A DNA stretch of 30,045 nt. Source: a virus. Position 1 is the first letter of the stretch, and the number at the start of each line of letters is the position of its first letter. The notes under the pieces are model-generated. The model was not told the DNA's origin. It searched no databases and worked only from the letters and a program-made list of their open reading frames with translations. The stretch lies in IMG/VR virus record IMGVR_UViG_3300017770_000097, positions 1 to 30,045 of that record. The stretch is one strand, 5' to 3'. The translations under genes were made by a program, and so were the position numbers. Of this stretch, positions 5,076 through 27,846 are shown piece by piece.

Positions 5076-8000
5076 TTAGTGAGCGTAATACTGATAGACT
5101 GGAACGCCTAATTCTTTTATTTTTTCTTTTAACTTCTTCTTGTTACTCTCAGTGTGAGCTATTGCTTGGTCAAATTGATTACTTAATTTACTTGCTCCAG
5201 CATCCACATCTTTACTAGATCCTAGATCATAGTGGGCTTGAGCTTGTAATATAAAATTAGTAAATACTCTAAGCTGCTCCCAAGTAGCTTCTCCTTCTGC
5301 AGGAGCGTTAGCAACATTATATCCTACATTGGACATCATAACTTTAATTTTGCTAGCAAGCTTCCAAAGTCTTGGATTGAAGCCATCTTCATCTGTATGC
5401 GAAGGAGGGATTATAAGCATTTTACTTATCTTATTAACAAAAGGTTTTTGACTAGGCTCACCTTTAGCGTTAGGCTCTAGACTAAGCATATAATCCATAA
5501 ACATTCTCTCTGTTCGAGAAAGTTTATCTTTAGGATCTCGACCTTTATTCTTTTTATTCCAAGCATTAACTGCTTTTTGAGTAGCCTCTTTAGTTTCTTT
5601 AAGATAAGACCATTCAGTAGAAGCTTTAAGCCAGTTAGCATTTACTTCTTCCAATATAGTATCATACCCATTAACATCCATCTTAAACGCATCATAAATA
5701 GTTAGCATATATGGGTTGCCACCGGAGTTGTATTTAAGTTTACTCCAGCTTTTTCCAGAAGAAGACATGGCTACAGTTGCAGCATCAAGAGATTGAACAG
5801 GAGCTGGTAAAGAACCACCATACACGTACTCTCCAGGGATATTTGTAATATTCCCGTCATCATCTGTACGAGTTCTAGCAGCAGCAGCGGTAAGTTTAGA
5901 ATCGTAATGCATAACCTTAGATACATTCCTTACTTTACCACCAGCAGCTTCTTGTAGCTTATCAAAGATAACTACATTATCTGTCTCAAAGTCTCCTGTG
6001 TTTTCATATCCACCTAGTATAAGGTCCATACCTGTATAGCTCTTAATAATTAAAGGCGAATCTATAGTCGCATGGACTATTGCAGAAGCCCGCATTAAAC
6101 GTCTAGCATTGACAGCTTCAGATGATATAACACCTACAAGAGCTGCACCGTACTTATTCATTAAAAGATCTTTAGCTACTTTGTCTTGCGACAGTTTAGA
6201 TTTCTTTATCAATCTATCTAAATTATCTGCAAAGTCTTTATCTTGTACAGCCAGTTCATCCATTAGATCAGACATAGCAAAAGCAAAGCTATTAATTTCT
6301 TTACCATAACCAAATGTCATAGTCGTCATCTTGTTTAACCCGCGATCACTATAAATCTCCCTAGCTACAAAATTAAGTTCGCCGATAAAAGCTTCTGTGT
6401 TACCATCCCAACCTTCGGTTATAGAGGATAGAGCAAGTTCTTTGAGTTGATCTCGCACATCACCTTCATCAAGAAGGTTTTCAGTGCCTAACCTAAGAAC
6501 ACCTGTTCGAAACGCAGTAGGAATATATCCCATCTGCATAGCGTTAGATGCAGTGCCATTAGTCTTACCATCGATGTAAGCGTTAATACTTGTTCTAAAG
6601 TCCTTACCTGCTTTCATCGCGTCTACATAATCCACGAAGTCAATCAACGCGTCCATATAATGTGGACCGTCTTCGCCTTTACTTTGTATAGCATCGATAA
6701 GATCCTTATCATTCGTAGGATCAAGAGCGAGAGGTTGAACTTTAGGGAATGCTGGATCAGAAAATGGTAACCCTTTCGAGATAGCTTCTGATACTGCTTC
6801 GTACTCTTCGTTCGTCATAGTTAGAACTTGCTTAAGCCTTTCACCCCATTGTTTTAGTTTTGGGGTTGCAACGGTTAAAGCGCTATCTCTAGCATCTGGT
6901 AAAAGAGAATCAGCTCCATTCATAGGTGAGCCACTAATGCTGTCGTTAAGTAATAACGTATAGATCTGTCTTAAATTACGTTCTTGTCTACTACCCTTCT
7001 TAACTACTGCAGGTGTTGCATTTTTAGTTACAAACCTAACAAGCTTAGATGTTACTGGATTGAAGTAAGTTTGCTGAGGTGTGAGGCGTCCATTAAAAGA
7101 CTGTACATTGTATGTTAGGTAATTAGCACCCTTTCTATTCTGTGCAATAGACTGTGCCTCTTGCGCAATCTTAAATCTCAACTTAGCCATATTCTCTTGT
7201 GGATCATATACACCGTTGAGTTTAATAAACTTATCTAATTCTCCTCGAGCTTCAGCTTCTTTAGCCTTTCTTTGATAACCTCTCTGCGCACCAAGAAAGT
7301 CATTCATTTTATCTTGGCCTATGCTATAGATGTCAGCCATCCAAGATGAAGATGAGTTTGTGGCAAGCACTGGTAAAAGAGTTTGATACATAATGCGTGC
7401 ACGTCTATTATCTACAACATGCGGTACTGTAGATAAATTCCTAGCAGCTTGAGCTATCTCTTTACCAAGTCTTATGTTTCCAACTCTGCCAGATATATCT
7501 TTTACTACTGTTGCACCTACATCTCCCGGTAATTTACCTTCTGGTAAAGGTATTTTAGAAGGCTGTACAATAGTTTTATTAAAGAACTTAGTACGCTCAA
7601 GAGTATTCCTCGCTAGCTTTGTTTGTCCTTCATCAGTAATACGATACGTAGCCTGCTCTTTCTCGTTGCCAGGGATAATCTCAATCATATCAGGATTATT
7701 GCGAGCCCATATTTCTTTCATAGCTTGCCCAAGAATTTCAGCTTCTTCTCTTGGTAAAGCTCTTTCAGGAATCGTAGGATCTGCAGATGCTTCACCTTTT
7801 AATCGTTGATACTCTTGGTATACCTTGTTACCGACCTTTGCATTATTCTTTGCACGAGTTACTTCAAGAGTTAACGGTTTTTGGTATTGTTCGTCAAACT
7901 TTGAGGTTTTCATTACTTCTTTTAAAGGATCTGATTCAGCTTCTTCTTCATTAAGCATAATTTCAGAAAAATCGTTTTCAACAACAAGCGCACCAACACC

Positions 8001-8639
8001 CATTAAAGCAGGATCAGCTTTATAAGAAAGCTTATCAGGCGTAAAGCCTAAATCTTCAGGTTGCTTTTCGACTACTGCTCCAAGCTTATGTAAGACTTTA
8101 CTCATTGCAGAAGTAGTTTCACCTTGAGGATCAGCTTGCACTGTAAACCCAATACCATTTTTATTATTAATAATATCAGTCGCGCGAGTCTTCATCCCAC
8201 CATCTGATTGGTTAGTTTGTAAAGGTAACGAGTTAGCATTTTGAGCTGAACTATTATATTGCCATTTATCCGGCCCGGTTTCCATGCGTTGTTTTTGTTT
8301 AAACGAAGGTATAGATTGTCTTTCTATTTCTTCTATAAAAGAACTATCAGGATTTACTATAGGTTGGGCAGGTGCAGACACAGAATCTTCTGGATTTTCA
8401 GGTGTACTTAACTGCGTCGTAGTTGGAGCTCTAACTTCCGTTGCTTGCTCTTGCTCAGATATGGCTTGCTCTTGCTCAGATATGGCTTGCTCTTGCTCTG
8501 GCATACCACGTAAGTTTTCAAGCCAAGAAGGTACAGCTTTAGCGTAATCTAATGCTGTCTCAGAGGGTAACTCTACCCCCTGAGGAATCTTCTTATCCTG
8601 TGCAGCACTAATACTACCTGCTACTGTTGCTCTAGCCAT
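5076..8639 (-). CDS. Putative virion-encapsidated single-subunit RNA polymerase (N4 vRNAP-like)
   Basis: A 1187-aa protein at the end of the late operon. Residues 1-170 are low-complexity and include three copies of an EQEQAIS repeat at about 48-66. The later part carries RNA polymerase motifs in order: S514-F-N-G-R518 followed by YFNP (the T/D-x2-G-R motif, with Ser first); motif A Asp690 in YIDGKTNG; motif B Arg766-x3-Lys770-x7-Tyr778-Gly (NKMTTMTFGYG), the same spacing as T7 R627/K631/Y639; a QSLDAA segment at 949-954 matching HSxDxS; and motif C Tyr982-Asp983-Ala-Phe. It lies beside two giant ejection-type proteins, as expected for a polymerase carried in the capsid and injected with DNA. 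N4 vRNAP is far larger (about 3500 aa). It could be a degenerate relative, but the catalytic residues are all kept. TAATG overlap and GGAG support the start. Confidence 0.8.
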   Translation of the reverse strand: MARATVAGSISAAQDKKIPQGVELPSETALDYAKAVPSWLENLRGMPEQEQAISEQEQAISEQEQATEVRAPTTTQLSTPENPEDSVSAPAQPIVNPDSSFIEEIERQSIPSFKQKQRMETGPDKWQYNSSAQNANSLPLQTNQSDGGMKTRATDIINNKNGIGFTVQADPQGETTSAMSKVLHKLGAVVEKQPEDLGFTPDKLSYKADPALMGVGALVVENDFSEIMLNEEEAESDPLKEVMKTSKFDEQYQKPLTLEVTRAKNNAKVGNKVYQEYQRLKGEASADPTIPERALPREEAEILGQAMKEIWARNNPDMIEIIPGNEKEQATYRITDEGQTKLARNTLERTKFFNKTIVQPSKIPLPEGKLPGDVGATVVKDISGRVGNIRLGKEIAQAARNLSTVPHVVDNRRARIMYQTLLPVLATNSSSSWMADIYSIGQDKMNDFLGAQRGYQRKAKEAEARGELDKFIKLNGVYDPQENMAKLRFKIAQEAQSIAQNRKGANYLTYNVQSFNGRLTPQQTYFNPVTSKLVRFVTKNATPAVVKKGSRQERNLRQIYTLLLNDSISGSPMNGADSLLPDARDSALTVATPKLKQWGERLKQVLTMTNEEYEAVSEAISKGLPFSDPAFPKVQPLALDPTNDKDLIDAIQSKGEDGPHYMDALIDFVDYVDAMKAGKDFRTSINAYIDGKTNGTASNAMQMGYIPTAFRTGVLRLGTENLLDEGDVRDQLKELALSSITEGWDGNTEAFIGELNFVAREIYSDRGLNKMTTMTFGYGKEINSFAFAMSDLMDELAVQDKDFADNLDRLIKKSKLSQDKVAKDLLMNKYGAALVGVISSEAVNARRLMRASAIVHATIDSPLIIKSYTGMDLILGGYENTGDFETDNVVIFDKLQEAAGGKVRNVSKVMHYDSKLTAAAARTRTDDDGNITNIPGEYVYGGSLPAPVQSLDAATVAMSSSGKSWSKLKYNSGGNPYMLTIYDAFKMDVNGYDTILEEVNANWLKASTEWSYLKETKEATQKAVNAWNKKNKGRDPKDKLSRTERMFMDYMLSLEPNAKGEPSQKPFVNKISKMLIIPPSHTDEDGFNPRLWKLASKIKVMMSNVGYNVANAPAEGEATWEQLRVFTNFILQAQAHYDLGSSKDVDAGASKLSNQFDQAIAHTESNKKKLKEKIKELGVPVYQYYAH
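8444..8501 (-). repeat. 21-bp tandem repeat in the virion polymerase gene
   Basis: Two identical 21-base copies (8444-8464 and 8465-8485) and most of a third encode EQEQAIS three times in the N-terminal linker of the 1187-aa protein. Exact identity between copies suggests recent slippage or duplication in a region under little constraint. Confidence 0.9.
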
Positions 8640-11600
8640 TACTGTTCTCCATTATAATTCCATCCGGAAAGATTACTTGCAAGCTTCTTATTAAGCTCTG
8701 TGAATGGACCAAGAAACGGAGTTGTCTTTAGCCCTTGATATGCTGCTCTTTCTATGTCACCTTCAATCACGCTTCCACCTACTCTACCAAGACGTTTAAC
8801 AGTGCTTAGTGCAGGTGATTCGCCAACTGATGTATTAAAGAACCACTCTCCCGCTCCATCAGAGCGTTGCTCATAGATCGGAAAGAACTGCTCTATAACT
8901 CTCTCACCAGTGCCAAGCAATCCGCTTGACATGACACCTCTTTGAATAATCTCAGCATCATCTAAGTACGGAGACTTTTGACCATACTTAATAAGGTCTT
9001 TTAAGTATTGAGATGCGAAGCCTAGCATAATCATAGTAGTCATAGTAGCAAACGCATTGTACTTCATAGCGGGAGTACCACGCTTAACGTACTCACCCCA
9101 TAACTTAGGTATATGGTTTGCTGTGAAGGTAGCCATAAAACCCTGGAATTGAGTGAAGAGAGCGAATCGAGGATCTTGGTAGATCATAGGTCTGTTAGCA
9201 GATTGTGGAAGCGCAACAGCATCATTGATGAATGTGAATGTTGCTTCACGAGTTGAGTCGTTCCAAAAGTTTAAATCCGCTTCATTCAAGACGTAACCAG
9301 AATCTAAAAGTTTAGATACTCTTACAAACTCATCTACGTCAATACCTAAATTACGCAAGGCTTCATCAGCCTCTTGCTGTTCTCTAGTTCTAGCTTCAGG
9401 ATTAACGCCACCAACATCTGCGTCGAATAGCGTTCTAGCTTTATCCACCATGTAGTCCATAGCAATAGCTGCTCGTGCTGCACGTGTAAAGTTAGTCCAC
9501 CCTGTTAGACCAGTGGCTTTAAAGAATAGTTCATATGCCCGCTGTGATAATTGATTAGTCTCTGTAACGCCTGTCACAGTAGCTGCACCAACATCCCACT
9601 CATAAAACCCTAATTCTTGTAGTCTTTCTTGGCCAGAAGTTAAAGCTCTTTCTTTTGCACCAGTAGCTACATCAGTAATAGAGCCTGCTCCTTGCCACAT
9701 AGCTTTAGCAAACTCTTCTCCCATGGTTTTTAAACTTCCATTCTTACCGAAGATTTGGTCGCTTGTTAAAGCTTTATGCACTAACGCGGCTTCAACAATT
9801 GAAGACACAGTTGCAAGAGGAAGTCCTGCTAGAGTAGTAAGCATCATAAAACTTCTTTGTATTCTCTGCAAGGCTTTACCTTGAGCTGATGTAGGACGTT
9901 TATAGTTTCCTGATTCAGCATCTAAGTAATCCTTCATTCGTGAAGCAACTTTGTTAACTTCCTCAGGAGATACACCCTCACTCACCATATCATCGAGAAG
10001 TTTATTAACTACTTCTCCATTCTTACCTATATATTTTCTATGAGCTACGTACCGTGCGGCTGACTTCGCTGCAGTTGAAACATTAGCAAACATATCTTGA
10101 TCCATATAGTCTTTAAATGCTTCTCTCTCTGAAAGACGTAGAGTTCTACGCCTATGCGCTGCAGGCACAATACCTCCATTCGTAACAGAGAATGCTTCAT
10201 CAACGTCAGACACTTGAGGATTATCTAGTATTTCGTCTACTAACTTCTTAGCATCTGCATACGTCATCCTATTATTAGGATCATTTGCAAATTCATCTAC
10301 TAAAGCCTGTTGAAATCCAGCTCTGTCTTTCCTAACCGCAGTTTTGTTTAAAGCCTTATACTTAAATAGGTAATTAGAAACTACGCCTAGCTCAGGGTTG
10401 TATTTCCTTTGGTCCCTATGCATATCAGCAGCAAGCTTATTCAGCTCCGCACCTAACTGGCGTATGACATCAGCATTCGGGCCTGTAACTCTATCAGGTT
10501 GAAACACTCCATTAACAACAGCAGCATTAAGCCTGTTATAAATATCTTGACTGATCTGCCCACGCTTCTTCCTATTCAACCATCTAGCATTGCCAGATAG
10601 CGTACGGTATACATCATCAGGTCTAGATATAGTATTCTTATACTTAGCTAGTATATGTTGCTTTGCGCTTTCAAAGCTTGATCCACTAAACGTTCTCTGC
10701 AATCCACCACCAAACATGTCGGCAAGTATTCTTGCAGATCTTGATCTAGCTTTTAACTCAGGTGTGAAGATATTACGAGTAGCGCCTTGCCATAGTTGAG
10801 ATACATTTAAAGCATTCTCTTTAAACACATCCCAAGTTGTACGTTCTCTATTGGATAACCTATGTTGATCTGATCTATCATTAAATGATGGGCCTGTAGT
10901 AGAAGGTCTATTAAAGATTTCTTCTGCTATCTCCTCAACAGATTGTATCCTCCCATTCTGACGCCTCTCCCAATCAGCCCACATACCAGCATCTGATGCA
11001 GTGGAGTTATCAGCATCATCTAACCTGTAAGCTAGATCAGCCCAAGCTCCCGTATTGTAGACAGCTCCAGGCACAGACATAGCACCACCTAGAGATCCGC
11101 CTGCGACAGCACCAGAGATCATCCGGTTATTAAGATCACCGAAGTCAAAGCCTTCTTGTAGGTGTGCTGCTGTGTAGCCTATAGCTTCTTGCAAAGCTTC
11201 AGTACCAGCCTCAGACGCTCCACCTAATCCAACGCGCGTAGATAAATCTTTAAACACTTGCTTCTTAGCGATTTGCTGTTTAGCAATATCTCTAACATTA
11301 CCTACTAATGCTGCAGCTTCTCTGCGAGTAGCCTCAAGAACACGGGCTTGAGCCATGCGTCTTGGTACACCCTGCCGGACAAGTTCTTCTGTGGCTTGTC
11401 TTATAACCTGCTTTGGTTTACCTGCTGCTACAATCCCCTTTAAACCGAGACGGTCTAATGCTGCTTGCATAACACCAGCACCGATTGCAACACCAGCATT
11501 TTTATTTTCTCCTTCCATCTCATTCCACACTTGCCCAGTGTAGAGCGAAACAGGGAGAAGCATAGAAGTACCATATGTAAATGGAGCTCCTAACGCGCCA

Positions 11601-12508
11601 ATAGCAGTACCAACCATGTATGGAATAGATAACGCTAAGTTATTGCCGAGATAATCAAACGCTTCTCCCGCGCTATCAACATCTCTAAAATCTAAAGTAG
11701 TTTCCCCGTAGGAACCAAGAAGATCACGCTGACGCTTCACTCCCTCCTCACCAATGTCGGCTAACCAATCAGACCCAGTAGTTTCTCCCATCATATTCAT
11801 GATGCCGTAGCTAGATTCCATAACACTAATCCAACCTTGCTCCCAAGAATCTGAGAAGGGGTTTAGTGATTGGTTATTTATATCCCTATCTAAGTGGTCT
11901 ATTTGTGTATTGCTATGGGAAAAGTAATTACCAAGACCAGAGCGCTTTGCATTTGCAAGTTGCTGCTCGTTCAATGCAGTCTGTTTAAATCCTAAAGACT
12001 TTGCACCTTCTTGTAAGGCACCATCTTCAATCATCTGTCTCGCAGTATCCCACTCATCCTTCGCAACGCCTACCTCAGCGTCACGCTCTCTTGAGTTCTG
12101 ACCAAGAGCCGCACGAGTCATATCCATACTAGAAGCATATTTAGTAGGCTCAAATATACCTTCTTTCAATACACGGTTTACAAATGAATCTCCTGCATCA
12201 TCTGTTAGATCAACGATAGGCCTACCAAACTGGCCAACCATAGGTTTACCATCTTCACCTATAACCGGTTTGATATTTGTATAACCTCGATCGCGTGCTA
12301 GCCTAGCGATAGATTCCGTAGCTACTTGTCCACCAGCTTCACCAGGTTTATACTGGTTATCGAATAGTTTTGAAACTTCAGGAGCATCAAACCCCTGAAG
12401 CCTATATAGATTACCTTCATTATCCTGAACAGTATCCGCGTCAATAAAATTTAAACGATCGTTAAGGCTCGTATCTGGACGATTTTGTATGTTATCTAAC
12501 CAACCCAT
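8639..12508 (-). CDS. Giant ejection-type virion protein with N-terminal SNase-like nuclease domain
   Basis: A 1289-aa protein. Residues about 18-120 match the staphylococcal nuclease fold: FIDADTV with Asp23/Asp25, Arg36, the D41-A-P-E44 motif and FGRPIVDL with Arg96, then GDSFVNRVLKEGIF like the SNase helix after the active site. These correspond to SNase Asp21, Arg35, Asp40, Glu43 and Arg87, so it should be active and Ca-dependent. Residues 290-325 are hydrophobic, as are an Ala/Gly-rich stretch near 425-480 and segments in the C-terminal part (around SFMMLTTLAGLPLATVSS and ATMTTMIMLGFASQYL). The long helical body fits internal virion proteins that cross the envelope with DNA, as T7 gp15/gp16 do. 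It sits between the transglycosylase giant and the virion polymerase. AAGGAG precedes the ATG. The nuclease call is firm; the virion role is inferred from position. Confidence 0.8.
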   Translation of the reverse strand: MGWLDNIQNRPDTSLNDRLNFIDADTVQDNEGNLYRLQGFDAPEVSKLFDNQYKPGEAGGQVATESIARLARDRGYTNIKPVIGEDGKPMVGQFGRPIVDLTDDAGDSFVNRVLKEGIFEPTKYASSMDMTRAALGQNSRERDAEVGVAKDEWDTARQMIEDGALQEGAKSLGFKQTALNEQQLANAKRSGLGNYFSHSNTQIDHLDRDINNQSLNPFSDSWEQGWISVMESSYGIMNMMGETTGSDWLADIGEEGVKRQRDLLGSYGETTLDFRDVDSAGEAFDYLGNNLALSIPYMVGTAIGALGAPFTYGTSMLLPVSLYTGQVWNEMEGENKNAGVAIGAGVMQAALDRLGLKGIVAAGKPKQVIRQATEELVRQGVPRRMAQARVLEATRREAAALVGNVRDIAKQQIAKKQVFKDLSTRVGLGGASEAGTEALQEAIGYTAAHLQEGFDFGDLNNRMISGAVAGGSLGGAMSVPGAVYNTGAWADLAYRLDDADNSTASDAGMWADWERRQNGRIQSVEEIAEEIFNRPSTTGPSFNDRSDQHRLSNRERTTWDVFKENALNVSQLWQGATRNIFTPELKARSRSARILADMFGGGLQRTFSGSSFESAKQHILAKYKNTISRPDDVYRTLSGNARWLNRKKRGQISQDIYNRLNAAVVNGVFQPDRVTGPNADVIRQLGAELNKLAADMHRDQRKYNPELGVVSNYLFKYKALNKTAVRKDRAGFQQALVDEFANDPNNRMTYADAKKLVDEILDNPQVSDVDEAFSVTNGGIVPAAHRRRTLRLSEREAFKDYMDQDMFANVSTAAKSAARYVAHRKYIGKNGEVVNKLLDDMVSEGVSPEEVNKVASRMKDYLDAESGNYKRPTSAQGKALQRIQRSFMMLTTLAGLPLATVSSIVEAALVHKALTSDQIFGKNGSLKTMGEEFAKAMWQGAGSITDVATGAKERALTSGQERLQELGFYEWDVGAATVTGVTETNQLSQRAYELFFKATGLTGWTNFTRAARAAIAMDYMVDKARTLFDADVGGVNPEARTREQQEADEALRNLGIDVDEFVRVSKLLDSGYVLNEADLNFWNDSTREATFTFINDAVALPQSANRPMIYQDPRFALFTQFQGFMATFTANHIPKLWGEYVKRGTPAMKYNAFATMTTMIMLGFASQYLKDLIKYGQKSPYLDDAEIIQRGVMSSGLLGTGERVIEQFFPIYEQRSDGAGEWFFNTSVGESPALSTVKRLGRVGGSVIEGDIERAAYQGLKTTPFLGPFTELNKKLASNLSGWNYNGEQ

Positions 12509-12528: not shown

Positions 12529-15500
12529 TTATTTTGCACTATTGATTTGCTCTTTTAAGAATTTAAAGAACGGTGTTTCAGTATTAGATGGTGTGTACTT
12601 AGACTGTTCTTCTTGACTTAGTTTTTCCCATTCAATTAATATTGAGTCAACAATCTGTACATCTGTTACGTTCTCAGCAGAACCACTACTTGTGACAATA
12701 CGTTTAGCAGTGGTGAGGGCTTCACTTATCTTCTCAGCACTCATCCGCTCACCCGCATTATCTCCTTCAGTGAGAGTAAATATACCTCTCCCAGTAGACA
12801 TTGCAGTAACGTACTGTGCTTGTAGATAAGGCTTAAGGCTTTGGCCCGCTTTACCACCATCTTTAACATCTCTCAATAAATCATTGTAAGCGTTACGGAT
12901 AATAGTAGGCATATAGGTTTCATCCACATTATTATCAATAGCCCATTTAGCAATATCTCCACCTACAACTTCAGGTGTTAATTGGGTTATTGTCCTATCA
13001 CTATCTTCGATACCAGCAAGATCCCTTTGAAGACCTTTAATTTGGTTAGCATAGTTTTTGCCTGCCTTTTGAACTGCTTCTCTATATTCAGGAGTTCTTG
13101 GTTGAAGCGCTGGATTATCATTCCAATATCCAGGAATTCTTTCACCAGTTTTAGCATTAACCCAGATGTTTTGATTAGTTCCTACGTTTACTTTCATAGC
13201 TCTAATACGTTGACCACTAGGGCTAAACACTGCTTTATATTCCCCTGTGCCTTCGCGCATAGCTTGCTTTGGAACTAGGTCTTCTAAGTTTTTACTTTTA
13301 CTATACGCCTTAATCGATGCAGTAGTATGGTCGCCTTCTTCCATTAACTCTTTGACATACTTACTATGTGCATCTCCACGAGATAGATAGTCTTTACCAG
13401 CAAACGCAAGTGCCTGCCCAGGTGTTGCACCAGTTAACATAGCACCAACAAATAGAACAGCTGCACGTTTCAACTCATCCGCTGTGAAGAGGTCTCCAAA
13501 GAATCCTTTAATAGCAGACATAGCTTTGGATTCTTCAGCTGGATTTTCAGCAATAACTGCAGCACCTTTACTTGCTGCTTCATCATTACTTATATTAGAA
13601 GCTGGACCTTCACCCTCATCAACTTCTGCAACTTTACTTCTAACAGTTGCTTCACGTTGACTAGAGTCTTGCGCCTGCTCAACAGTTTGACGTTGGTCAG
13701 GACCGCGAGGATCGTCAAAGTCTACTGTAGCATTCACATCAACCACATCTGCAAGAGCTAATGCATCTAATGTTTCAGGACTACTAGGATCCATAAGAGC
13801 TAACTCATGAGTTGATGGGATTACAGTTCCGTCTAACGTAGGAACATTTTCAGGACCTAACTCAGCAATAACTCCAGGCGATAAAGCGCCAAGGTGATCT
13901 GCTTCTGCGTATATACCAGGTCCTAGGTTTCCTATATCAGGCCTAGAATCATGTATACCCGGCGCCGTTAAATCAGTATAACCTAAGTTGCGCTGATCTT
14001 CAATGATAGGGTCTACAACATTTACTAAATCGTTGCGTCTCCTAATTTCATCTGAAGCAGTTTCATCTCCATCATCTGATAGTGTAATCAAAGCATCTTC
14101 GCTTAGTTGAGAGTAATTAATAGGTGAAGGCTGTGGTGGAACTGGAGGGGCTTGCGCTACAAGTCCCGATTCAATAGGCCTATCATTAGCATAACTAGGA
14201 TGAGCTGCAGCTTTTTGATGTAGCACATTGTTAAACGCTTCAATACGTCTAGGATCTCCTTCAGGAAACTGACGAGCATACTCTCTTAGCTGTGCATTAT
14301 GCTTTAGTCTATTTGCTTCTGCAATATCTTCCCTTTGCTCAACAATTTGAGATGAAGTATTCAGCAATGCCTCATCACTCATTGGTGCCGGTGCAGTATC
14401 CACAACTATTGGCTCTGCATCTACCGTAGGATTAGGCATAGTCGGAATGTTAAGCGGTGAGGGTGGGACCATTGTGTTAGATGTAGGTTGAACTACATTG
14501 TCTTGACCTGGACGTACAGGCATATTAGAAGTTAAGTCAAAAGTAAAGGGAGCAGGATTAGGATTTACGCGAGGTACTCTATCCTCATTAATAGTAGGCG
14601 CATTGCCAGTGTGACGAGGATCACTAGGTCCTACCCATATGTAACTTTGCGTAGCAGAATCCCATACCTTCTTCTTTCCTCCAGCTCTACCGCCGGGATT
14701 TAAATGTTGCACAGGACCTCCTTGGTTAAACACCATTCCACCTACGTACTGGCTAGGGCCTCTACGATAAAGATCGCGTTGCAAATCCTCAGCTACGGAG
14801 GGAACTGCCTGCATTTCAAATTGACGAGGCATTAAGTAATTATACGTGCTAACAGCAGCGTCCCTAAAATAATCGCTCCAAGAAAAGCCATCATCTGCAT
14901 CTTCAGCAGGTACCTCCCCTGTAGGATTTTTAATCTGTAAAGGCCGAACGTTTGTTTCAGGTCCTAAATAGATTTCATTACGTAACTGGGGATTAGACTC
15001 TTCCTTAATAGTTCCAGGAGGACTATAGCTGGGATTAGGAATAAGCTCTTGTTGCGGTGCAAAGTCAGGAATAAACACACCAGCATCAGGGTACCCTTGC
15101 ACAGGCACTTCTAACATAGGAGAAGGCTGTACTTGTTGAGGTACTTGCGGCATCACAACAGGTTGTTCTTGCTGCGGAAGTGTAGGTGTTTGATCCACCT
15201 GTACTTCTTGAGGTATTCCTACAGAAGTAGGTCTTGATTTAGGATTTATGGATGTTTCTACTGCTCCTGTTTCATTTGTGGTTATGATAGGAGGTAAGTA
15301 ATGATCCATACCTTTATCCATCCAATCTGGAAATAATGCCTTCGCTCTATCTAAATGAGTTATATTTCCAGCGTCTTCGTACATTGTATTTAATTTTTGA
15401 GAAACAGTGCCGGGCATACCGCCTGCAAACTCATCTGTCTTACCATGTGCTTTAGGTCCAACTCCACCAGCATTTATAGAAGAGTATAGGTCAAGAGCTC

Positions 15501-16068
15501 CATGTTCTCCTGGCTTAAATCCTCTAGCTAAAGAGTGTTTAACAATCGCACCAGGAACCCAGTTACCATCTTCACCCATGTATCCTAATTGCGACCTTAA
15601 AGATGAGTTTTTAGTATTGAACTCAACATCAAACTCATCTGCTATAGAACCTTTTGCAACCGATCCATCTTTACTTCCTGTTCCAAACTGAATAAGCCCT
15701 TTGTGCATTCCGTGTTTAGTCACTGGACCTTTTCTCAAAGGATCAAATGTTCCGGCTGTTTCGTAAGATATAACAGTAGCTAAATCTAAAGGAGATATTT
15801 TAAGTATTTTTGCGGTTTCAATTATACCTTCTTGCAAGTCATAAGGTTTGAATTTATCTGGTCTTGCTTTAGGCCTTAGAGATGAACCACCAGTATTTAA
15901 AGAGAGTACTCCCATATTCCCCTCCGCGCGTGCAGCCAAACCATTCTCATTCATTTGTTCGATGATAGGACCGTACATCTCCGTAGCTTCCTTATTGAGG
16001 ACGTACTCCCCTGGGGTGAGCATCGCGGGGACGCTATCCCTATTTGTTGGATCAGTAAGATCTTTCAT
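12529..16068 (-). CDS. Giant internal virion protein with lytic-transglycosylase-like domain
   Basis: An 1179-aa protein. It opens with SVPAMLTPGEYVLN (12-25), a segment common in phage tail-measure and ejection proteins. Residues about 75-250 look like a lysozyme-fold lytic transglycosylase: a helix ending in Ser-Tyr-Glu103 as candidate catalytic acid (ISYETAGTFDP), then GLIQFG at 124-129 and a second helical part. Such domains open peptidoglycan locally during DNA entry (T7 gp16 is the model). A long linker rich in Pro and Gln follows (about 290-660), and a hydrophobic stretch (AAVLFVGAMLTGATPG) lies in the last third. It precedes the nuclease giant and the virion polymerase in one operon. 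A good AAGGGAG lies seven bases before the ATG. The domain could instead be a related muramidase type. Confidence 0.78.
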   Translation of the reverse strand: MKDLTDPTNRDSVPAMLTPGEYVLNKEATEMYGPIIEQMNENGLAARAEGNMGVLSLNTGGSSLRPKARPDKFKPYDLQEGIIETAKILKISPLDLATVISYETAGTFDPLRKGPVTKHGMHKGLIQFGTGSKDGSVAKGSIADEFDVEFNTKNSSLRSQLGYMGEDGNWVPGAIVKHSLARGFKPGEHGALDLYSSINAGGVGPKAHGKTDEFAGGMPGTVSQKLNTMYEDAGNITHLDRAKALFPDWMDKGMDHYLPPIITTNETGAVETSINPKSRPTSVGIPQEVQVDQTPTLPQQEQPVVMPQVPQQVQPSPMLEVPVQGYPDAGVFIPDFAPQQELIPNPSYSPPGTIKEESNPQLRNEIYLGPETNVRPLQIKNPTGEVPAEDADDGFSWSDYFRDAAVSTYNYLMPRQFEMQAVPSVAEDLQRDLYRRGPSQYVGGMVFNQGGPVQHLNPGGRAGGKKKVWDSATQSYIWVGPSDPRHTGNAPTINEDRVPRVNPNPAPFTFDLTSNMPVRPGQDNVVQPTSNTMVPPSPLNIPTMPNPTVDAEPIVVDTAPAPMSDEALLNTSSQIVEQREDIAEANRLKHNAQLREYARQFPEGDPRRIEAFNNVLHQKAAAHPSYANDRPIESGLVAQAPPVPPQPSPINYSQLSEDALITLSDDGDETASDEIRRRNDLVNVVDPIIEDQRNLGYTDLTAPGIHDSRPDIGNLGPGIYAEADHLGALSPGVIAELGPENVPTLDGTVIPSTHELALMDPSSPETLDALALADVVDVNATVDFDDPRGPDQRQTVEQAQDSSQREATVRSKVAEVDEGEGPASNISNDEAASKGAAVIAENPAEESKAMSAIKGFFGDLFTADELKRAAVLFVGAMLTGATPGQALAFAGKDYLSRGDAHSKYVKELMEEGDHTTASIKAYSKSKNLEDLVPKQAMREGTGEYKAVFSPSGQRIRAMKVNVGTNQNIWVNAKTGERIPGYWNDNPALQPRTPEYREAVQKAGKNYANQIKGLQRDLAGIEDSDRTITQLTPEVVGGDIAKWAIDNNVDETYMPTIIRNAYNDLLRDVKDGGKAGQSLKPYLQAQYVTAMSTGRGIFTLTEGDNAGERMSAEKISEALTTAKRIVTSSGSAENVTDVQIVDSILIEWEKLSQEEQSKYTPSNTETPFFKFLKEQINSAK

Positions 16069-18797: not shown

Positions 18798-21700
18798 CTA
18801 CGTCTCCGTTATAACAATGCGACCCGCAGCACCATTACCTCCTGGAGAGTTGCCATAGCTTCCACCATTAGCACCACCTCCGCCTCCTGGTTCATTACCA
18901 TTTTGTGTAATTGAACCACCATTACCACCATTATCAGAAGTACCAGCTGAAGATGTTTGGCCTCCCCGTGCTTTCGTAGAACCACCACCACCTGCATGCG
19001 TCACGTTAGCAGTAGCTCCACCGGATAAATATCCATTACTCGATAAACCTGAAGTAGAACCACCACTTTGTAAAAGAGAAAGGGTAGCGATAGCACTAAC
19101 AGCGGTTGAAAGTGATCCAGACCCACCGGGCGCGCTACTGCGTTGAGATTGGTTGCCTGCGCTACTACCTCCGGTTCCGCCGGAAGCTGTCGCGTTGCCG
19201 ACGCTTGGTACTGTAACAGTTGTAGTACCTCCACTTCCTGCTCCTTCATTAGTATCATTACTTCCAGTACCACCACTACCAATAGTGTAAGAAATACTTG
19301 TGCCAACACCACCTAAGTTTGATAATGAAGCTGTAAAACTAGCGTAGCCTCCACCGCCTCCACCAGTGCCATTCGTGTGTCCACCTCCACCTCCTCCACC
19401 AGCGCCCCATATCTCAATCTTAACTGTTTGAGTTTGTCCGCCTTGGAGGGTGTACGATCCAGAGGAAGTAGCTGAGTGGAGAAATCCAGTAGGTCTCCAT
19501 ACAGATTGCCCACTAGCAATAGAGAGATAGTTCCCATCAGACGCACCAGTCACACTTAACCTGTTGACAGATATACTTCCCGTAGTAATGTTGCCACCAT
19601 CAATGTTAGTGATGGTAGCTCCGCCTGTTACAAAGTCTCCACTGGAGAAAGTAACTAGTCCAGAGAACTCTGTAGCTTTTACAGGAGTTGCACCAGTTGC
19701 GGTAGTAGTTGTAGCGGTTCCGGAAGTATCATTAAATACCACAACGGAAGAGTATACACTATCACTACTTGTTGCGCTTTGCGTAGGAGGAGATTCTGAC
19801 CACCCACTAGACATACCAGATAAAGCACCAGTTGACCAAGTCACAGTGGCAGCAGGCGCTGAAGGAGCTGTAGCAACCGCTGGGTTTGTATATATAGTTC
19901 TTTGGGCTAATCGAGGAGCATCCGCACCATCATCACCGTCTTGTCCATCAGCTCCATTTTGAGCTAAGATTTGAGGTGAAGACCATGTAAGTGAGGTATC
20001 AGATCCTGTTGCGCCTTGCACAGTAGCAAGACTAGTAGATACATAAATTGGATTTGTCCCGGATGGAACGCTTGTACTCCATCCACTTGGCGCAGTTCCA
20101 GAGTTTGTGCCAAAGTTATAAGCACCTCCTGTGGGAGTACTTGGAGCTGAGCTAGCTCTAATATAAATTGGAAATAAGAATGTGCTTAATCCATCCGCTC
20201 CATCAGTCCCATTAGTACCATTTTCAACAAACAATGTAGGTGTCGACCAGTTGACAGAAGTATCGGTTCCAGTATCTCCTGATATACTAAACAAATTTCT
20301 TGTAGCGTATATCGGGTTATTACCGCTGGGCACTGTGTCAGACCACCCTGTAGGATTTGTAAGCGTGTTATTACCAAAGTTAAAGCTTCCATTAGTAGGT
20401 GCGCTTGGCGCAGAAGTTGCGCGTTGGAATACTATAGCTTGATAAGTAGATACACCATCAGAGCCTGCGGCACCGGTAGCACCAGTACCTCCATCATTAC
20501 CATCAGCACCATCAGCTCCATTTTGAGCTAATAATGTAGGTGTTCCCCAAGTTAAAGTAGAGTCTGTACCTCCACCTCCTGCCGCGCTTATAGCAGTAGA
20601 GACTGACATGTACACAGGGTTATTTCCTGAAGGAACACTTGTATACCAATTGTTAGGAGCTGTTAAAGTGTTATTAGTAAAGTTATAGCTGCCGCCAGAC
20701 GATGGAGCACTTGGCGCAGAGGATGCTCTTTGATATATTGATACAAATGCTACTGAAGATCCATTACTACCAGCGGCACCATCAACACCATCTGCACCAT
20801 TTTGAGATATTATTACAGGTGTGCTCCACGTAAGTGAAGAGTCTGTAGCAGTTGTTCCTTGTACAGAAGCAACAGTTGTACTTATATATAGAGGATTAGT
20901 TCCGGAAGGTACAGTAGTAGACCACCCAGTAGGAGCGGTACCTGTATTATTTCCAAAGTTATAACTACCTCCAGTAGGAGCTGATGATATAGTAGAACTA
21001 GACCTTTTGTAGATTGGAAAGAAATAAGTGCTTAACCCATCAGCCCCATCAGTTCCGTCAGTTCCGTTAGTACCATTAGTTCCGTTAGTACCATTTTGAA
21101 CAAACAATTCAGGTGCACTCCACGATACAGTTGAATCTGTACCTGTATCTCCTGAGACGGAGAACAATCCGCGGGATGCATATATTGGATTAGTTCCTGA
21201 AGGTACTGAAGCTGACCATCCTGAAGGGGTTGTTAAAGTATTTGTACCAAAGTTAAAACTTCCACCTGAAGGTGTGCTTGGAGCGGATGCAGCACGTATA
21301 AATATTAATGCTTGGTATGTAGACCTTGCGTCTGTCCCAGGCGCGCCAGCTGCTCCATCTTGTAGATATAAATCAGGAACACCCCAAGTTAAACTAGAAT
21401 CTGTGCCTGTACCCCCTGCAGCACTAGTAGCTGTACTCAAGGATATATAAACAGTTCCTGTTCCAGATGGAACGCTTGCACTCCAACCAGTCGGAGGAGA
21501 TATAGCATTGCTGTTAAAGTTATAACTGCCTCCTGTAGGAGCTTGTGATATAGTAGAGCTTGACCGTTTATAAATAGATAAAGCAGCTACCGATTTACCA
21601 TCATCCCCATCAACACCGTCAGCGCCATCTGCACCACCAGTTCCTAAAAGCGCTGCAGTATTCCATGAGTTAGACCCGGTTATAGTACCGCTTCTTGCCG

Positions 21701-22013
21701 CAACATACCGTAGAGTAACCCATACGTTATCACCACCTGTAGTAGGAATCGTTGAAGTCCATCCATTATTCGCAGATGAAACTATGGGTGAGTTTTCAAA
21801 ATTATATACTACACTAGTAGGTAAGGTTGGAGCAGTAGAATTTGATGTTGATCTTTGATATAGGAAAAGCGCTGTGCTTCCAGAATCCACACTCGATTGA
21901 GACGCTGAGATTTCCCCTGCGTTTAACCCTTGGTTTATCAAACTTGTTAGTCGGTATGTCCAACTATCTAGTTGCGGATCACCAGTAATTGGAGGGTGGA
22001 TTAAAGTCGTCAT
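18798..22013 (-). CDS. Long tail fibre with tandem repeats, collagen-like segments and Gly-rich tip
   Basis: A 1071-aa fibre. Residues 1-50 form a short base-attachment segment (TYRLTSLINQGLNAGEIS). About seven to eight repeats of 95-105 residues follow, each with the pattern S-I-Y-x-R-(S/A)-S…GG-S-Y-N-F…GW-S-x2-VPSG…S-L-TWS-x-P. Between them lie short collagen-like Gly-x-Y runs (GADGADGVDGDDG, NGTNGTNGTNGTDG). The last 200 residues are dominated by Gly, with runs of six to seven, and end in AAGRIVITE. Gly-rich tips of this kind carry receptor binding in T-even-type adhesins. TAATG overlap and AAGGAGG support the start. The nozzle-type gene is upstream and an assembly-type gene downstream. 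It is the probable host-range determinant; the receptor is unknown. Confidence 0.9.
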   Translation of the reverse strand: MTTLIHPPITGDPQLDSWTYRLTSLINQGLNAGEISASQSSVDSGSTALFLYQRSTSNSTAPTLPTSVVYNFENSPIVSSANNGWTSTIPTTGGDNVWVTLRYVAARSGTITGSNSWNTAALLGTGGADGADGVDGDDGKSVAALSIYKRSSSTISQAPTGGSYNFNSNAISPPTGWSASVPSGTGTVYISLSTATSAAGGTGTDSSLTWGVPDLYLQDGAAGAPGTDARSTYQALIFIRAASAPSTPSGGSFNFGTNTLTTPSGWSASVPSGTNPIYASRGLFSVSGDTGTDSTVSWSAPELFVQNGTNGTNGTNGTDGTDGADGLSTYFFPIYKRSSSTISSAPTGGSYNFGNNTGTAPTGWSTTVPSGTNPLYISTTVASVQGTTATDSSLTWSTPVIISQNGADGVDGAAGSNGSSVAFVSIYQRASSAPSAPSSGGSYNFTNNTLTAPNNWYTSVPSGNNPVYMSVSTAISAAGGGGTDSTLTWGTPTLLAQNGADGADGNDGGTGATGAAGSDGVSTYQAIVFQRATSAPSAPTNGSFNFGNNTLTNPTGWSDTVPSGNNPIYATRNLFSISGDTGTDTSVNWSTPTLFVENGTNGTDGADGLSTFLFPIYIRASSAPSTPTGGAYNFGTNSGTAPSGWSTSVPSGTNPIYVSTSLATVQGATGSDTSLTWSSPQILAQNGADGQDGDDGADAPRLAQRTIYTNPAVATAPSAPAATVTWSTGALSGMSSGWSESPPTQSATSSDSVYSSVVVFNDTSGTATTTTATGATPVKATEFSGLVTFSSGDFVTGGATITNIDGGNITTGSISVNRLSVTGASDGNYLSIASGQSVWRPTGFLHSATSSGSYTLQGGQTQTVKIEIWGAGGGGGGGHTNGTGGGGGGYASFTASLSNLGGVGTSISYTIGSGGTGSNDTNEGAGSGGTTTVTVPSVGNATASGGTGGSSAGNQSQRSSAPGGSGSLSTAVSAIATLSLLQSGGSTSGLSSNGYLSGGATANVTHAGGGGSTKARGGQTSSAGTSDNGGNGGSITQNGNEPGGGGGANGGSYGNSPGGNGAAGRIVITET
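19950..21640 (-). repeat. Diverged tandem repeat array (fibre repeats and collagen-like linkers)
   Basis: Units of about 290-310 bases recur, each with a Gly-x-Y linker that is near-repetitive even at base level (for example alternating gttccgttagtaccatta at 21056-21098). Units are diverged rather than identical, so the array is old, but the short linkers are nearly exact and could expand or contract by slippage. Confidence 0.75.
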
Positions 22014-23903: not shown

Positions 23904-24317
23904 TTAAGTCTCCTTCATTTTGTTTACGAGGATCTTTTCTAGTTTCTTTTCTTCTGGACGACGTGCACGTAACCCTAAGTATCCAGTTAGAATCCATACA
24001 ACTCCAGCTACAACACCTAATCCAATTAAATGCTGTGTGAAGTTAGACCACATAAATGCTAACATTTCCCAAAAGTTCAACTCACCATCAGCTCCAGAAA
24101 AATCTTGTGGAGAGCTAGGCGGAGTTGTTACAACATCTGTTACAACACCCGCGGCTACTCCTACAGTCGCACCCACTATTGGTCCACCCGCCGCCGTGCC
24201 TATAACAGTCGCAGCACTCGAGCCCATCGTCGACATTATCCCATCTTTCGATAAATTGCCTAAGCACGCTGTAAGGGTCGTCATTAACAGTATACATATA
24301 CTTATCCTATAAATCAT
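23904..24317 (-). CDS. Lipoprotein with C-terminal membrane span (candidate unimolecular spanin)
   Basis: A 137-residue protein starting at ATG 24317 (TGATG overlap with the NrdJ stop). Residues 1-18 form a lipoprotein signal with lipobox L15-T-A-C18. Next is a Gly/Ala stretch at 34-59 with GxxxG spacing (ATVIGTAAGGPIVGATVGVAAGVV), then a short soluble part (60-96), one strong membrane span at about 97-116 (HLIGLGVVAGVVWILTGYLGL) and a Lys/Arg-rich tail. An outer-membrane lipid anchor plus an inner-membrane span in one chain is the architecture of unimolecular spanins such as T1 gp11 (131 aa), which join the two membranes at lysis. The Gly-zipper stretch also resembles outer-membrane lipoproteins, so this role is a hypothesis. 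A GTG at 24326 is a less likely start. Confidence 0.75.
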   Translation of the reverse strand: MIYRISICILLMTTLTACLGNLSKDGIMSTMGSSAATVIGTAAGGPIVGATVGVAAGVVTDVVTTPPSSPQDFSGADGELNFWEMLAFMWSNFTQHLIGLGVVAGVVWILTGYLGLRARRPEEKKLEKILVNKMKET

Positions 24318-26068
24318 CAAGCACACTCTTTAATTCCTGTGACGGGATCAAAGAAGCAAGCTTCCGCTTTATTCTCCTCCGTTCCACCCGTCGTTGCAGT
24401 GATTTCAGTCGCGCCCTCTGTCTCCTCTTCCTTTTCCACGGTTTGTTCAATGGTGTTGAGAATACCGTACCGCTTTCCCGCGGCGCGGAATGTTGTGACA
24501 CCTTTACAACCGTTCTTCCAAGCTTCCAAGTAGACATCTTTAAATTCTTCATACGTAACATCATCTCCCACGTTACAAGTTTTAGACACAGCACTATCGA
24601 TGTAATGTTGTGCTAAGGCTAATACGGCGAGATGTTCTCTAACGGTAATTTCATTTGACGTACGTCCGCTGACTCCTCTTGTGTAAGCATAGTCCTCAAC
24701 GCGCTCAAAGCGTGGTCCGTTAGCAGTTTGGATGGTACGCTCATAGTAATGTGAAAAGACTGGTTCGATTCCTCCGCTGATGTTATCTGCCACCAGTGAT
24801 ATGGTGCCTGTTGGAGCAATTGAGGTAAGGTGTGAATTTCTGATACCATACTCTTTAATTCCCTTTCGTAGTTTGTATGGAAGAGTTTTTGCAAAGCCTG
24901 ATTTAAGCCAGCTCGATCTATATAGAGGGAATGCACCTTTCTCTTTTGCAAGTTCTAATGAGGCACGGTATGTAGCGTTACGGAGGGTTTTGAATACCTC
25001 TTCTGCCCATTCGAGGAATGATTCACTACCATAATTATGTCCTAACATTTCACCTGCGTTAGCTAATCCAGAGATTCCAAGTCCCATTCGTCTCTTATTC
25101 TTAGCTTCATCCTCCTGTTCTTTAAGTGGGTAGATTGTTCTATCAATAACATTATCCATTGCGCGGACAATGTGAGGTATATCATTATCAAACTGTTTCC
25201 AATTGAAAGTCTCACCATCAACATACTTAGTTAAGTTGAAACTTCCAAGCAAGCATGCCCCGTAAGGTGGAAGAGGCTGCTCACCACAAGGATTAGTGGC
25301 TGCAATGCTTTCACAATACCATAGGTTGTTTGATTCGTTAATTCTATCGATGAAGATAATACCTGGTTCCGCCCAGTCCCAAGTGCTTTCCATAATCATA
25401 TCCCAGATTTCAGTAGCACTTTCCTGTCCCCACACTTCACCTTCAAATATTAGATCATAAGGAGCGTCATTCTCTACTGCTTCCATAAACTTATCGGTTA
25501 CGGCAACACTAACATTAAACCCAGTAAGCTTATCAGAATTACGTTTAGCAGTAATGAACTCTTTAATATCCGGGTGGTCCACACGTAAAACCCCCATCTG
25601 CGCACCCCGTCGATGTCCTGAACTCGAGATGGTTTGGCAAACAGCGTCAAATATGCCCATAAAAGATACGGGCCCAGACGCTGAGGAATCAAGGGATTTA
25701 ATCTTACTCCCCGATGGACGCAGTTGTGAAAAATCATAACCAATACCTCCGCCTCGACGCATAGTCTCTGCTGCTTCTCCAGCTCGTTGCATAATAGTAT
25801 CCATGCTATCATCAATCGTACCACTTACAAAACAGTTGTACGCTGTTGTAATACGACGTGAACCAATAGCTGATTGTACTCGTCCAGCTGGTAGGAATCT
25901 CATCTCACCTAAAATACTTTCTAAGTATTCCTTATGTTGGTCATCATCACATAAAGCTCCAGCGATACGTATAACCTTATCATGGAAGGTTTCGTCTGCT
26001 TGTCTATACTTCATTTGATCGATTTCTTGAGAGATGGTTAGTTCAGGGCCTTGGTATGCGTTCTTCAT
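24317..26068 (-). CDS. nrdJ: Class II (adenosylcobalamin-dependent) ribonucleotide reductase
   Basis: A 583-aa enzyme reducing ribonucleotides to deoxyribonucleotides. The first redox cysteine is Cys79 (YNCFV). The radical site is N259-P-C261-G-E263, and the partner is Cys272 (GACLLGSFNL), eleven residues after Cys261 as in class II enzymes. SIAPTGTIS lies at 416-424, RRGAQMG at 153-159, and a C-terminal pair Cys571/Cys582 could shuttle electrons. The pair is ten residues apart rather than the usual tight CxxC, and a Thr/Glu-rich linker precedes it. Oxygen-independent class II enzymes need B12, so the host must make or import it. The ATG 26068 follows GAGGA; GTG 26083 is a poorer start. The gene sits between a coiled-coil membrane protein and the lysis-type genes inside the late block. 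Confidence 0.93.
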   Translation of the reverse strand: MKNAYQGPELTISQEIDQMKYRQADETFHDKVIRIAGALCDDDQHKEYLESILGEMRFLPAGRVQSAIGSRRITTAYNCFVSGTIDDSMDTIMQRAGEAAETMRRGGGIGYDFSQLRPSGSKIKSLDSSASGPVSFMGIFDAVCQTISSSGHRRGAQMGVLRVDHPDIKEFITAKRNSDKLTGFNVSVAVTDKFMEAVENDAPYDLIFEGEVWGQESATEIWDMIMESTWDWAEPGIIFIDRINESNNLWYCESIAATNPCGEQPLPPYGACLLGSFNLTKYVDGETFNWKQFDNDIPHIVRAMDNVIDRTIYPLKEQEDEAKNKRRMGLGISGLANAGEMLGHNYGSESFLEWAEEVFKTLRNATYRASLELAKEKGAFPLYRSSWLKSGFAKTLPYKLRKGIKEYGIRNSHLTSIAPTGTISLVADNISGGIEPVFSHYYERTIQTANGPRFERVEDYAYTRGVSGRTSNEITVREHLAVLALAQHYIDSAVSKTCNVGDDVTYEEFKDVYLEAWKNGCKGVTTFRAAGKRYGILNTIEQTVEKEEETEGATEITATTGGTEENKAEACFFDPVTGIKECA

Positions 26069-26090
26069 ATTTGTTGTCCTCACTGGGCTT

Positions 26091-27105: not shown

Positions 27106-27846
27106 CTATGGTGTATATCTGACGCAGCACATGCCGCCTGTCAGGCTAGAGGTTGAGTAGGTCACGCTTCCACTAGACGATTTCATATCCACGCCATACT
27201 TGTGCTGCCCTGCGCTTTGTTGGTTGTCTAAGTTAGAAATGTTAGAGGGGCTTGACCAGTTGTGACAAGCTCCTACAAACACAGCATCCCCTGCATTACC
27301 GCCTTGAGTAAGGGAGTTACCTGACCCTTGTTGATTTTGGGGCATGCTGGGATTTCCAGTGACTTCCCAAATACCCATACCCTGACTATTCCAACCACCT
27401 GTCGGCGCACCACTTCTACCCATTGTTACGGAAGTAGATGTTCCAATGTAGTATCTATAAAATGAAATATACTGTGTTTCATTTGAGTACGTTGCGTGAC
27501 GGTAAATATCCCTAGTCATATTGCTACCATTTACGCTTGGTACAGGCGCACTGCCTTGCCCATAGACATCTTCATGCCAAAAATAGACCCCTGCAATGAG
27601 AGTTGTTGCGCTTGAACTCAACCCGCTAAGAGTAAAGGAAGTTGAACTTGTCGAGCCTTGGCGCAAGGTTGCTGTGATTGACGAACTTGCACCATACCAT
27701 TCGTTGAAAGCCATCTGTGCGCCAGAGGACTTACTAATAAGCCCCCTGATGTCACTGTCATTAATTTCACACGCTGAACCAGAGGAACCCCCTGCCTCAA
27801 CGTGAATATCATTTAATGAAATCTGTCCACTACTTTGCAGAGCCAT
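27106..27846 (-). CDS. Fibre/spike-type structural protein
   Basis: A 246-residue protein beginning MALQSSGQISLNDIHVEAGGSSGS and continuing with DSDIRGLI…AFNEWYGAS. This N-terminal module recurs in many marine phage tail and neck proteins. The rest is a Ser/Thr/Gly-rich beta domain with a TLIAGVYFWHEDV strand and Cys in the last part (MCCVRYTP). No enzymatic motif is seen. GAGGAG lies eight bases before the ATG, inside the end of the S74 fibre gene (17-base overlap). It probably forms a tip or side piece at the same fibre. Confidence 0.78.
   Translation of the reverse strand: MALQSSGQISLNDIHVEAGGSSGSACEINDSDIRGLISKSSGAQMAFNEWYGASSSITATLRQGSTSSTSFTLSGLSSSATTLIAGVYFWHEDVYGQGSAPVPSVNGSNMTRDIYRHATYSNETQYISFYRYYIGTSTSVTMGRSGAPTGGWNSQGMGIWEVTGNPSMPQNQQGSGNSLTQGGNAGDAVFVGACHNWSSPSNISNLDNQQSAGQHKYGVDMKSSSGSVTYSTSSLTGGMCCVRYTP

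What the first reader, a model, noticed from the sequence alone, without database searches (positions are those of the whole stretch)
12149..12457. SNase-like nuclease domain at the N-terminus of a giant ejection-type protein
Residues 18-120 of the 1289-aa protein keep all catalytic positions of staphylococcal nuclease (Asp25, Arg36, Asp41, Glu44, Arg96). A nuclease attached to a protein thought to enter the cell ahead of or with phage DNA is unusual. It could destroy host DNA or invading plasmids, cut host RNA, or process phage DNA ends during entry.
Basis: partly seen in the sequence, partly recalled or inferred. Interest (0 to 1): 0.75.

Follow-up and report, generated by a model that had tools for sequence, protein, structure and literature searches.

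The report
Nuclease domain on phage ejection protein
A group of marine short-tailed phages carries an intact-looking staphylococcal-nuclease domain on the front end of a giant protein that is probably pushed into the host cell before the phage DNA, so these virions may bring a DNA/RNA-cutting enzyme with them.

Summary
Residues 16-141 of the 1289-aa protein (window 8639-12508, minus strand) fold as staphylococcal nuclease: AlphaFold pLDDT 92, then Z 10.5 against SNase crystal structures. In 55 non-redundant relatives the equivalents of SNase D19, D21, R35, E43 and R87 are invariant. Only the D40 equivalent (Asp41) drifts to E/N/S/T/Q. All 81 fetched loci that reach the N-terminus have the domain, although nearly all were collected with body peptides. 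The body is homologous to a phage virion-structural family (phrog_6958, hhalign 99.9%), and its predicted fold is closest to T7-type ejectosome/core proteins. The gene before it carries peptidoglycan-lytic domains (lysozyme or SLT in relatives). Three relatives carry lysozyme-SNase-body in one chain. Cultured phages share the fusion: Roseobacter phage CRP-7 gp34 (annotated hypothetical) and, in a second lineage, the gp16-type internal virion protein of Alteromonas Foturvirus phages. Best reading: an ejection protein whose N-terminal enzyme is a nuclease, delivered at the start of infection, most likely to the envelope side of the DNA channel. Activity, delivery and target are untested. I found no description of an SNase ejection-protein fusion in the papers I could search. 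It is a new variant of a known, modular kind of protein.

The parts
12086..12463 (-). SNase-fold domain, residues 16-141 of the 1289-aa protein
   Evidence: AlphaFold model pLDDT 91.7; Foldseek listed top 50 all SNase; VIA-align Z 10.5, 115 aa, 3.3 A; profile hit to SNase E 2.6e-5
12434..12442 (-). Asp23-Ala24-Asp25, equivalent to the DGDT motif of SNase (D19, D21)
   Evidence: both Asp invariant in 55 relatives and in 81 rows
12401..12403 (-). Arg36 = SNase R35
   Evidence: invariant
12386..12388 (-). Asp41 = SNase D40, the one catalytic-site residue that varies
   Evidence: D 36, E 8, N 5, S 4, T 1, Q 1 of 55
12377..12379 (-). Glu44 = SNase E43
   Evidence: invariant
12221..12223 (-). Arg96 = SNase R87
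   Evidence: invariant
8639..12508 (-). whole 1289-aa gene: N-terminal SNase plus ejection-protein-like body
   Evidence: ORF and RBS; body homologous to phrog_6958 virion structural protein
9224..10819 (-). part of the helical body (residues 564-1095) that matches T7-type ejectosome/core proteins by predicted fold
   Evidence: 8vb2_A Z 8.7 over 290 aa, 7eyb_I Z 6.5, 9jyy_I Z 6.4
12529..16068 (-). 1179-aa gene read just before the SNase gene, conserved neighbour
   Evidence: synteny across relatives; relatives' copies carry Pfam Phage_lysozyme or SLT near the N-terminus
15322..15900 (-). probable peptidoglycan-lytic cassette of that neighbour (residues 57-249)
   Evidence: 32-45% identical to segments of annotated internal virion proteins / tape measure proteins of other phages; the lytic role itself is inferred from its position and from relatives
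5076..8639 (-). 1187-aa gene right after the SNase gene, third giant protein of the set
   Evidence: conserved neighbour in relatives; no match among phage records

Best explanation
The protein is an internal virion (ejection) protein in which the N-terminal enzymatic head is a staphylococcal-nuclease domain instead of the transglycosylase found on T7 gp16. The peptidoglycan-cutting head sits on the neighbouring protein in this phage, and on the same chain in some relatives. At infection the set of giant proteins leaves the capsid before the DNA and builds a channel through the envelope. By analogy with T7, where the gp16 N-terminal domain stays in the periplasm on the outside of the tunnel and the C-terminal hub faces the cytoplasm, the nuclease most likely ends up outside the DNA channel on the envelope side. 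There it would cut DNA or RNA without sequence preference, while the phage's own DNA passes inside the tunnel. Shown: SNase fold (predicted), conserved catalytic residues, purifying selection, ancient and fixed fusion, virion-structural homology, lytic-domain neighbourhood. Inferred: that it is packaged and ejected, that it is active, where it sits, and what it cuts.
For: SNase fold and register. Catalytic residues invariant. Pfam SNase gathering cutoff met by relatives L092 and L090. Present in 81 of 81 loci that reach the N-terminus; the 80 loci were selected by body peptides only. dN/dS of the domain well below 1 in close pairs. Body: hhalign 99.9%, E 2e-33 to phrog_6958-type proteins; 7 of 8 relatives hit phrog_6958 virion structural protein, best E 7e-36; structure matches to internal virion proteins and to PhiM1 and T7 ejectosome/core proteins as top three. 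Lytic partner. Lysozyme-SNase-body in L090-L092, using a lysozyme cassette related to those on vRNAPs and next to internal virion proteins of other phages. Same fusion in isolate CRP-7 gp34. Second lineage: Alteromonas phage R8W gp44, annotated internal virion protein, SNase 27.0 bits vs cutoff 21, body homologous to T7-type gp16 (hhalign 94%, E 1.6e-7). T7 topology and domain swapping: PMC8954989.
Against: The window family's body has no detectable sequence similarity to T7-type gp16, and Z 8.7 is modest for a helical protein (note). The body model is only medium confidence (pLDDT 69). No proteome shows the protein in a virion. No activity data. An active nuclease inside a capsid full of DNA needs some form of restraint that I did not identify. 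The periplasmic placement is by analogy only.
Confidence: 0.55

Rival explanations
1. The nuclease is delivered all the way into the cytoplasm and attacks host DNA or RNA in the first minutes, to stop the host or free nucleotides.
For: Injected multi-domain 'polyvalent' proteins with DNase domains are proposed to do this (PMC5512222). The window also encodes a ribonucleotide reductase that could use recycled nucleotides.
Against: In relatives the SNase lies right behind a lysozyme domain that must act on peptidoglycan, which suits the periplasm better. SNase products are 3'-phosphates (own knowledge), poor precursors for dNTPs. Only a handful of copies per virion are expected, by analogy with T7.
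Confidence: 0.22
2. The nuclease acts on the phage's own DNA, for example trimming or releasing a genome end during packaging or entry.
For: A gp16-type body is close to the portal and the DNA in T7-type cores (PMC8954989).
Against: SNase is sequence-nonspecific and leaves 3'-phosphate ends that block polymerases (own knowledge). Homologous bodies in Vibrio BA6 and Pseudomonas JB8 phages do without the domain.
Confidence: 0.1
3. The domain is a catalytically silent nucleic-acid-binding or structural module.
For: The D40-equivalent metal ligand is replaced in about a third of relatives.
Against: D19, D21, R35, E43 and R87 equivalents are invariant over relatives with about 33% mean column identity; this is the pattern of an enzyme, and D40 is the most tolerant of the SNase catalytic positions (own knowledge).
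Confidence: 0.08
4. The protein is not ejected; it is a nuclease made late in the infected cell that happens to be fused to a structural protein.
For: No virion proteome available here.
Against: Virion-structural homology, fold matches to ejectosome proteins and lytic-domain neighbourhood.
Confidence: 0.05

Closest known systems
T7 gp16 / internal virion protein D (ejection protein)
   Same: Giant, largely helical protein with an enzymatic N-terminal domain, in an operon with other internal virion proteins; fold match to T7 and PhiM1 core proteins
   Different: N-terminal domain is SNase instead of lytic transglycosylase; no detectable sequence similarity of the body to T7-type gp16
Foturvirus (Autographiviridae) Alteromonas phages R8W gp44 and H4/4 gp40, 'putative internal virion protein'
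   Same: SNase at the N-terminus of a gp16-type ejection protein, downstream of a lysozyme domain
   Different: Different phage lineage; body not detectably related to the window body at sequence level
Roseobacter phage CRP-7 gp34 (hypothetical protein)
   Same: Same fusion, same gene order, body relative at 19% identity
   Different: Lytic domain on the upstream protein is pesticin-like; not annotated as a nuclease
phrog_6958 virion structural protein (Vibrio BA6, Pseudomonas JB8)
   Same: Homologous body
   Different: No SNase domain
Polyvalent proteins with DdrB-like ParB DNase domains
   Same: Injected multi-domain phage proteins with a DNase and sometimes a lysozyme on one chain (PMC5512222)
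   Different: Different nuclease fold; that paper does not mention a staphylococcal or thermonuclease domain

Membership tests
Staphylococcal nuclease superfamily (PF00565) | SNase OB-fold | tested here: met
   pLDDT 91.7 model, Z 10.5 over 115 aa to SNase structures
Staphylococcal nuclease superfamily (PF00565) | Catalytic residues D21, R35, D40, E43, R87 | tested here: met
   all five present in the window; four invariant across the family, D40 equivalent varies
Staphylococcal nuclease superfamily (PF00565) | Profile score above the curated cutoff | tested here: inconclusive
   met by relatives L092 (26.4) and L090 (22.0) vs 21; not by the window sequence alone
Staphylococcal nuclease superfamily (PF00565) | Nuclease activity | not testable with these tools
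   needs biochemistry
phrog_6958 virion structural protein | Homologous body | tested here: met
   hhalign 99.9%, E 2e-33 over 816 columns; 7 of 8 relatives match by profile
T7 gp16-type ejection protein | Core/ejectosome fold of the body | tested here: inconclusive
   top three structural matches are PhiM1 and T7 core proteins, Z 8.7, 6.5, 6.4, but the model is medium confidence and helical
T7 gp16-type ejection protein | Detectable sequence homology to gp16 | tested here: not met
   hhalign probability 0.9%, E 0.058; ejection proteins are known to diverge below 10% (PMC8954989). So it is described as working like gp16, not filed as a gp16
T7 gp16-type ejection protein | Peptidoglycan-lytic domain at the N-terminus of the same chain | tested here: not met
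   replaced by SNase; lytic domain is on the neighbouring gene, or in front of the SNase in L090-L092
T7 gp16-type ejection protein | Present in virion and ejected into the host | not testable with these tools
   needs virion proteomics
Polyvalent proteins (Iyer et al. 2017) | Large injected protein with effector domains and LPD regions | tested here: inconclusive
   several fold matches are named 'large polyvalent protein associated domain'; no profile test of LPDs

The most novel reading that the evidence does not exclude
A virion-borne nuclease parked on the outside of the entry channel that destroys foreign nucleic acid at the envelope, for instance the DNA of a competing phage entering the same cell, while the phage's own genome is shielded inside the tunnel: exclusion delivered with the particle, before any phage gene is expressed.
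Probability: 0.15. Interest if true: 0.85.

Novelty: new variant of a known kind. Interest (0 to 1): 0.6.

Why it matters
Ejection proteins are known to swap peptidoglycan-cutting domains, but the main review of them does not mention a nuclease (PMC8954989). A nuclease that is fixed across a diverse marine phage group, and that appears again in a second lineage, suggests that some phages bring a nucleic-acid-degrading enzyme into the cell with the particle. It makes a direct test possible in cultured phages (CRP-7, R8W, H4/4): what is cut, where, and whether rival DNA or host nucleic acid is the target. It also raises the question of how an active nuclease is kept from cutting the packaged genome.

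Tried and rejected
Pfam and PHROGs on the window protein alone: no SNase or virion hit; only the family profile shows it. PDB phmmer with the window domain: nothing. tblastn of the window domain against phage records: noise only. Foldseek of the body against PDB: no significant match; the ejectosome match appears only with VIA-align and BFVD, so it is treated as supporting, not decisive. Profile comparison of the body with T7-type gp16 and with the Foturvirus body: no significant match. Direct hhalign of the window SNase profile with the Foturvirus protein: only weak, 49 columns with the motif aligned; the Foturvirus domain is identified by Pfam instead. Relatives in bacterial genomes: none, so no prophage or host clue. 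Phage GBSV1 nuclease as a precedent: rejected, its paper reports no homology to known nucleases. CRP-822-type roseophages: unrelated siphoviruses. Calcium dependence as an argument for periplasmic action: dropped, because an SNase homologue can prefer Mg over Ca (PMC3585158). Ten loci without the domain were checked: their matches begin inside the protein, so the N-terminus was not recovered; L056 has the domain in a shifted frame.

Full report
Observation. The window is a 30,045-base viral fragment with a T7-like RNA polymerase, a primase/helicase and a ribonucleotide reductase. The protein in question is encoded at 8639-12508 on the minus strand, 1289 aa, with a clear ribosome-binding site.

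Is it really SNase? The single sequence scores nothing in Pfam or PDB searches. Relatives were therefore collected from viral contigs. A profile of eight N-terminal regions already finds staphylococcal nuclease among PDB sequences (E 4.8e-4). A profile of 55 finds it at E 2.6e-5 with the catalytic residues in register. Relatives L092 and L090 pass the Pfam SNase cutoff, and ten of 55 match SNase in Pfam at E up to 0.1. AlphaFold gives pLDDT 91.7; the 50 matches listed by Foldseek and the 50 listed by VIA-align are all SNase, best Z 10.5.

Is it likely to be active? Across 55 non-redundant sequences the equivalents of D19, D21, R35, E43 and R87 never change; D40 is D in 36 and E, N, S, T or Q in the rest (confirmed on 81 rows). 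Only six columns of 165 are invariant and four of the five predicted catalytic residues are among them (P about 2.5e-6). The closest pairs show dN/dS of about 0.03-0.4 in the domain. The Foturvirus domains described below show the same pattern, with Asn at the D40 position. Activity itself is not shown.

How fixed is the fusion? The 80 loci were found with peptides of the body, not of the nuclease. Of the 91 loci from both scans, all 81 that reach the N-terminus give an SNase-profile hit; in the other ten the match to the protein begins inside it. Some loci are the same contig fetched twice; 55 are non-redundant. The isolate CRP-7, at only 19% identity in the body, has it as well. Its gp34 is annotated hypothetical, and the text of the CRP-7 paper does not use the word nuclease. 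The fusion is therefore old and kept.

What is the body? Seven of eight relatives match phrog_6958, 'virion structural protein', and the profile comparison with two members, from Vibrio phage BA6 and Pseudomonas phage JB8, gives 99.9% and E 2e-33. Those two lack the SNase. The predicted body is almost all helix (pLDDT 69). In BFVD it matches internal virion proteins, internal virion protein D and 'large polyvalent protein associated domain' proteins. Among PDB chains the top three VIA-align matches are the PhiM1 ejectosome and T7 core proteins, Z 8.7, 6.5 and 6.4. Sequence profiles do not connect it with T7-type gp16, so the gp16 link rests on fold and context.

Context. The gene before it (12529-16068) and the gene after it (5076-8639) are conserved neighbours. 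Relatives of the first carry Phage_lysozyme or SLT domains near the N-terminus; CRP-7 has a pesticin-type lysozyme there; and the window copy shares residues 57-249 with internal virion and tape measure proteins of other phages. In L090-L092 a phage lysozyme sits in front of the SNase on one chain, and this lysozyme is related to those on virion RNA polymerases and next to internal virion proteins of Vibrio and Alteromonas phages.

A second lineage. Following that lysozyme led to Foturvirus phages of Alteromonas. R8W gp44, annotated internal virion protein, starts with an SNase domain (27.0 bits, cutoff 21). Its position behind the preceding internal virion protein and the lysozyme, and in front of the tail fibre, is that of T7 gene 16, and its C-terminal part is homologous to T7-type gp16 (hhalign 94%, E 1.6e-7). 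In H4/4 the lysozyme and the SNase-bearing protein are annotated as joined by a -1 frameshift; an AAAAAAG run lies there. An SNase on an ejection protein thus occurs in at least two marine podovirus groups. Whether the two arose independently was not tested.

Mechanism. In T7 the N-terminal 156 residues of gp16 form the wings of the periplasmic tunnel and the C-terminal hub is placed in the cytoplasm (PMC8954989). PhiM1 shows that lytic domains move between ejection proteins (PMC11440229). The window protein fits this modular plan with a nuclease as the head. Because SNase follows lysozyme on one chain in relatives, and lysozyme must work on peptidoglycan, I favour the envelope side for the nuclease, with the phage DNA protected inside the tunnel. 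The first rival is cytoplasmic action on host nucleic acid. Which nucleic acid is cut is unknown.

Novelty. In the papers I could search, no SNase ejection-protein fusion was found. The 'polyvalent protein' survey describes ParB-like DNases in injected proteins and states that other DNase domains do not displace or accompany them (PMC5512222). The library lacks most subscription papers, so prior mention cannot be excluded.

Noticed in passing
L098 (Alteromonas phage H4/4) 5998-11867 and L104 (R8W) 5998-11951: The lysozyme gene ends in an AAAAAAG run just before the SNase-bearing internal virion protein; H4/4 is annotated with a -1 frameshift, so a lysozyme-SNase-gp16 fusion may be made as a frameshift product.
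   Followed up: partly
L090 709-5295, L091 6467-11020, L092 6326-11155: Three viral contigs encode lysozyme, SNase and ejection-protein body in one chain of about 1500-1600 aa.
   Followed up: yes
window 24317-26083 (-): A ribonucleotide reductase gene lies inside the structural-gene block; CRP-7 has its RNR in the same block but split into two ORFs with another ORF between them, perhaps an intron.
   Followed up: no
window 5076-8639 (-): The third giant protein (1187 aa) is conserved next to the SNase gene in relatives but has no match in phage records, PHROGs or Pfam.
   Followed up: partly
window 18798-22013 (-): 1071-aa protein with repeated collagen-like G-x-y stretches and a glycine-rich end, probably a tail fibre or adhesin.
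   Followed up: no
window 27830-29665 (-): 611-aa fibre-like protein whose C-terminus (SDERLKEDI...AQEVEAVLP) looks like a peptidase S74 intramolecular chaperone.
   Followed up: no
L056 6971-7710: The SNase and the body are in different frames in this contig, probably a sequencing error or a frameshift site.
   Followed up: partly
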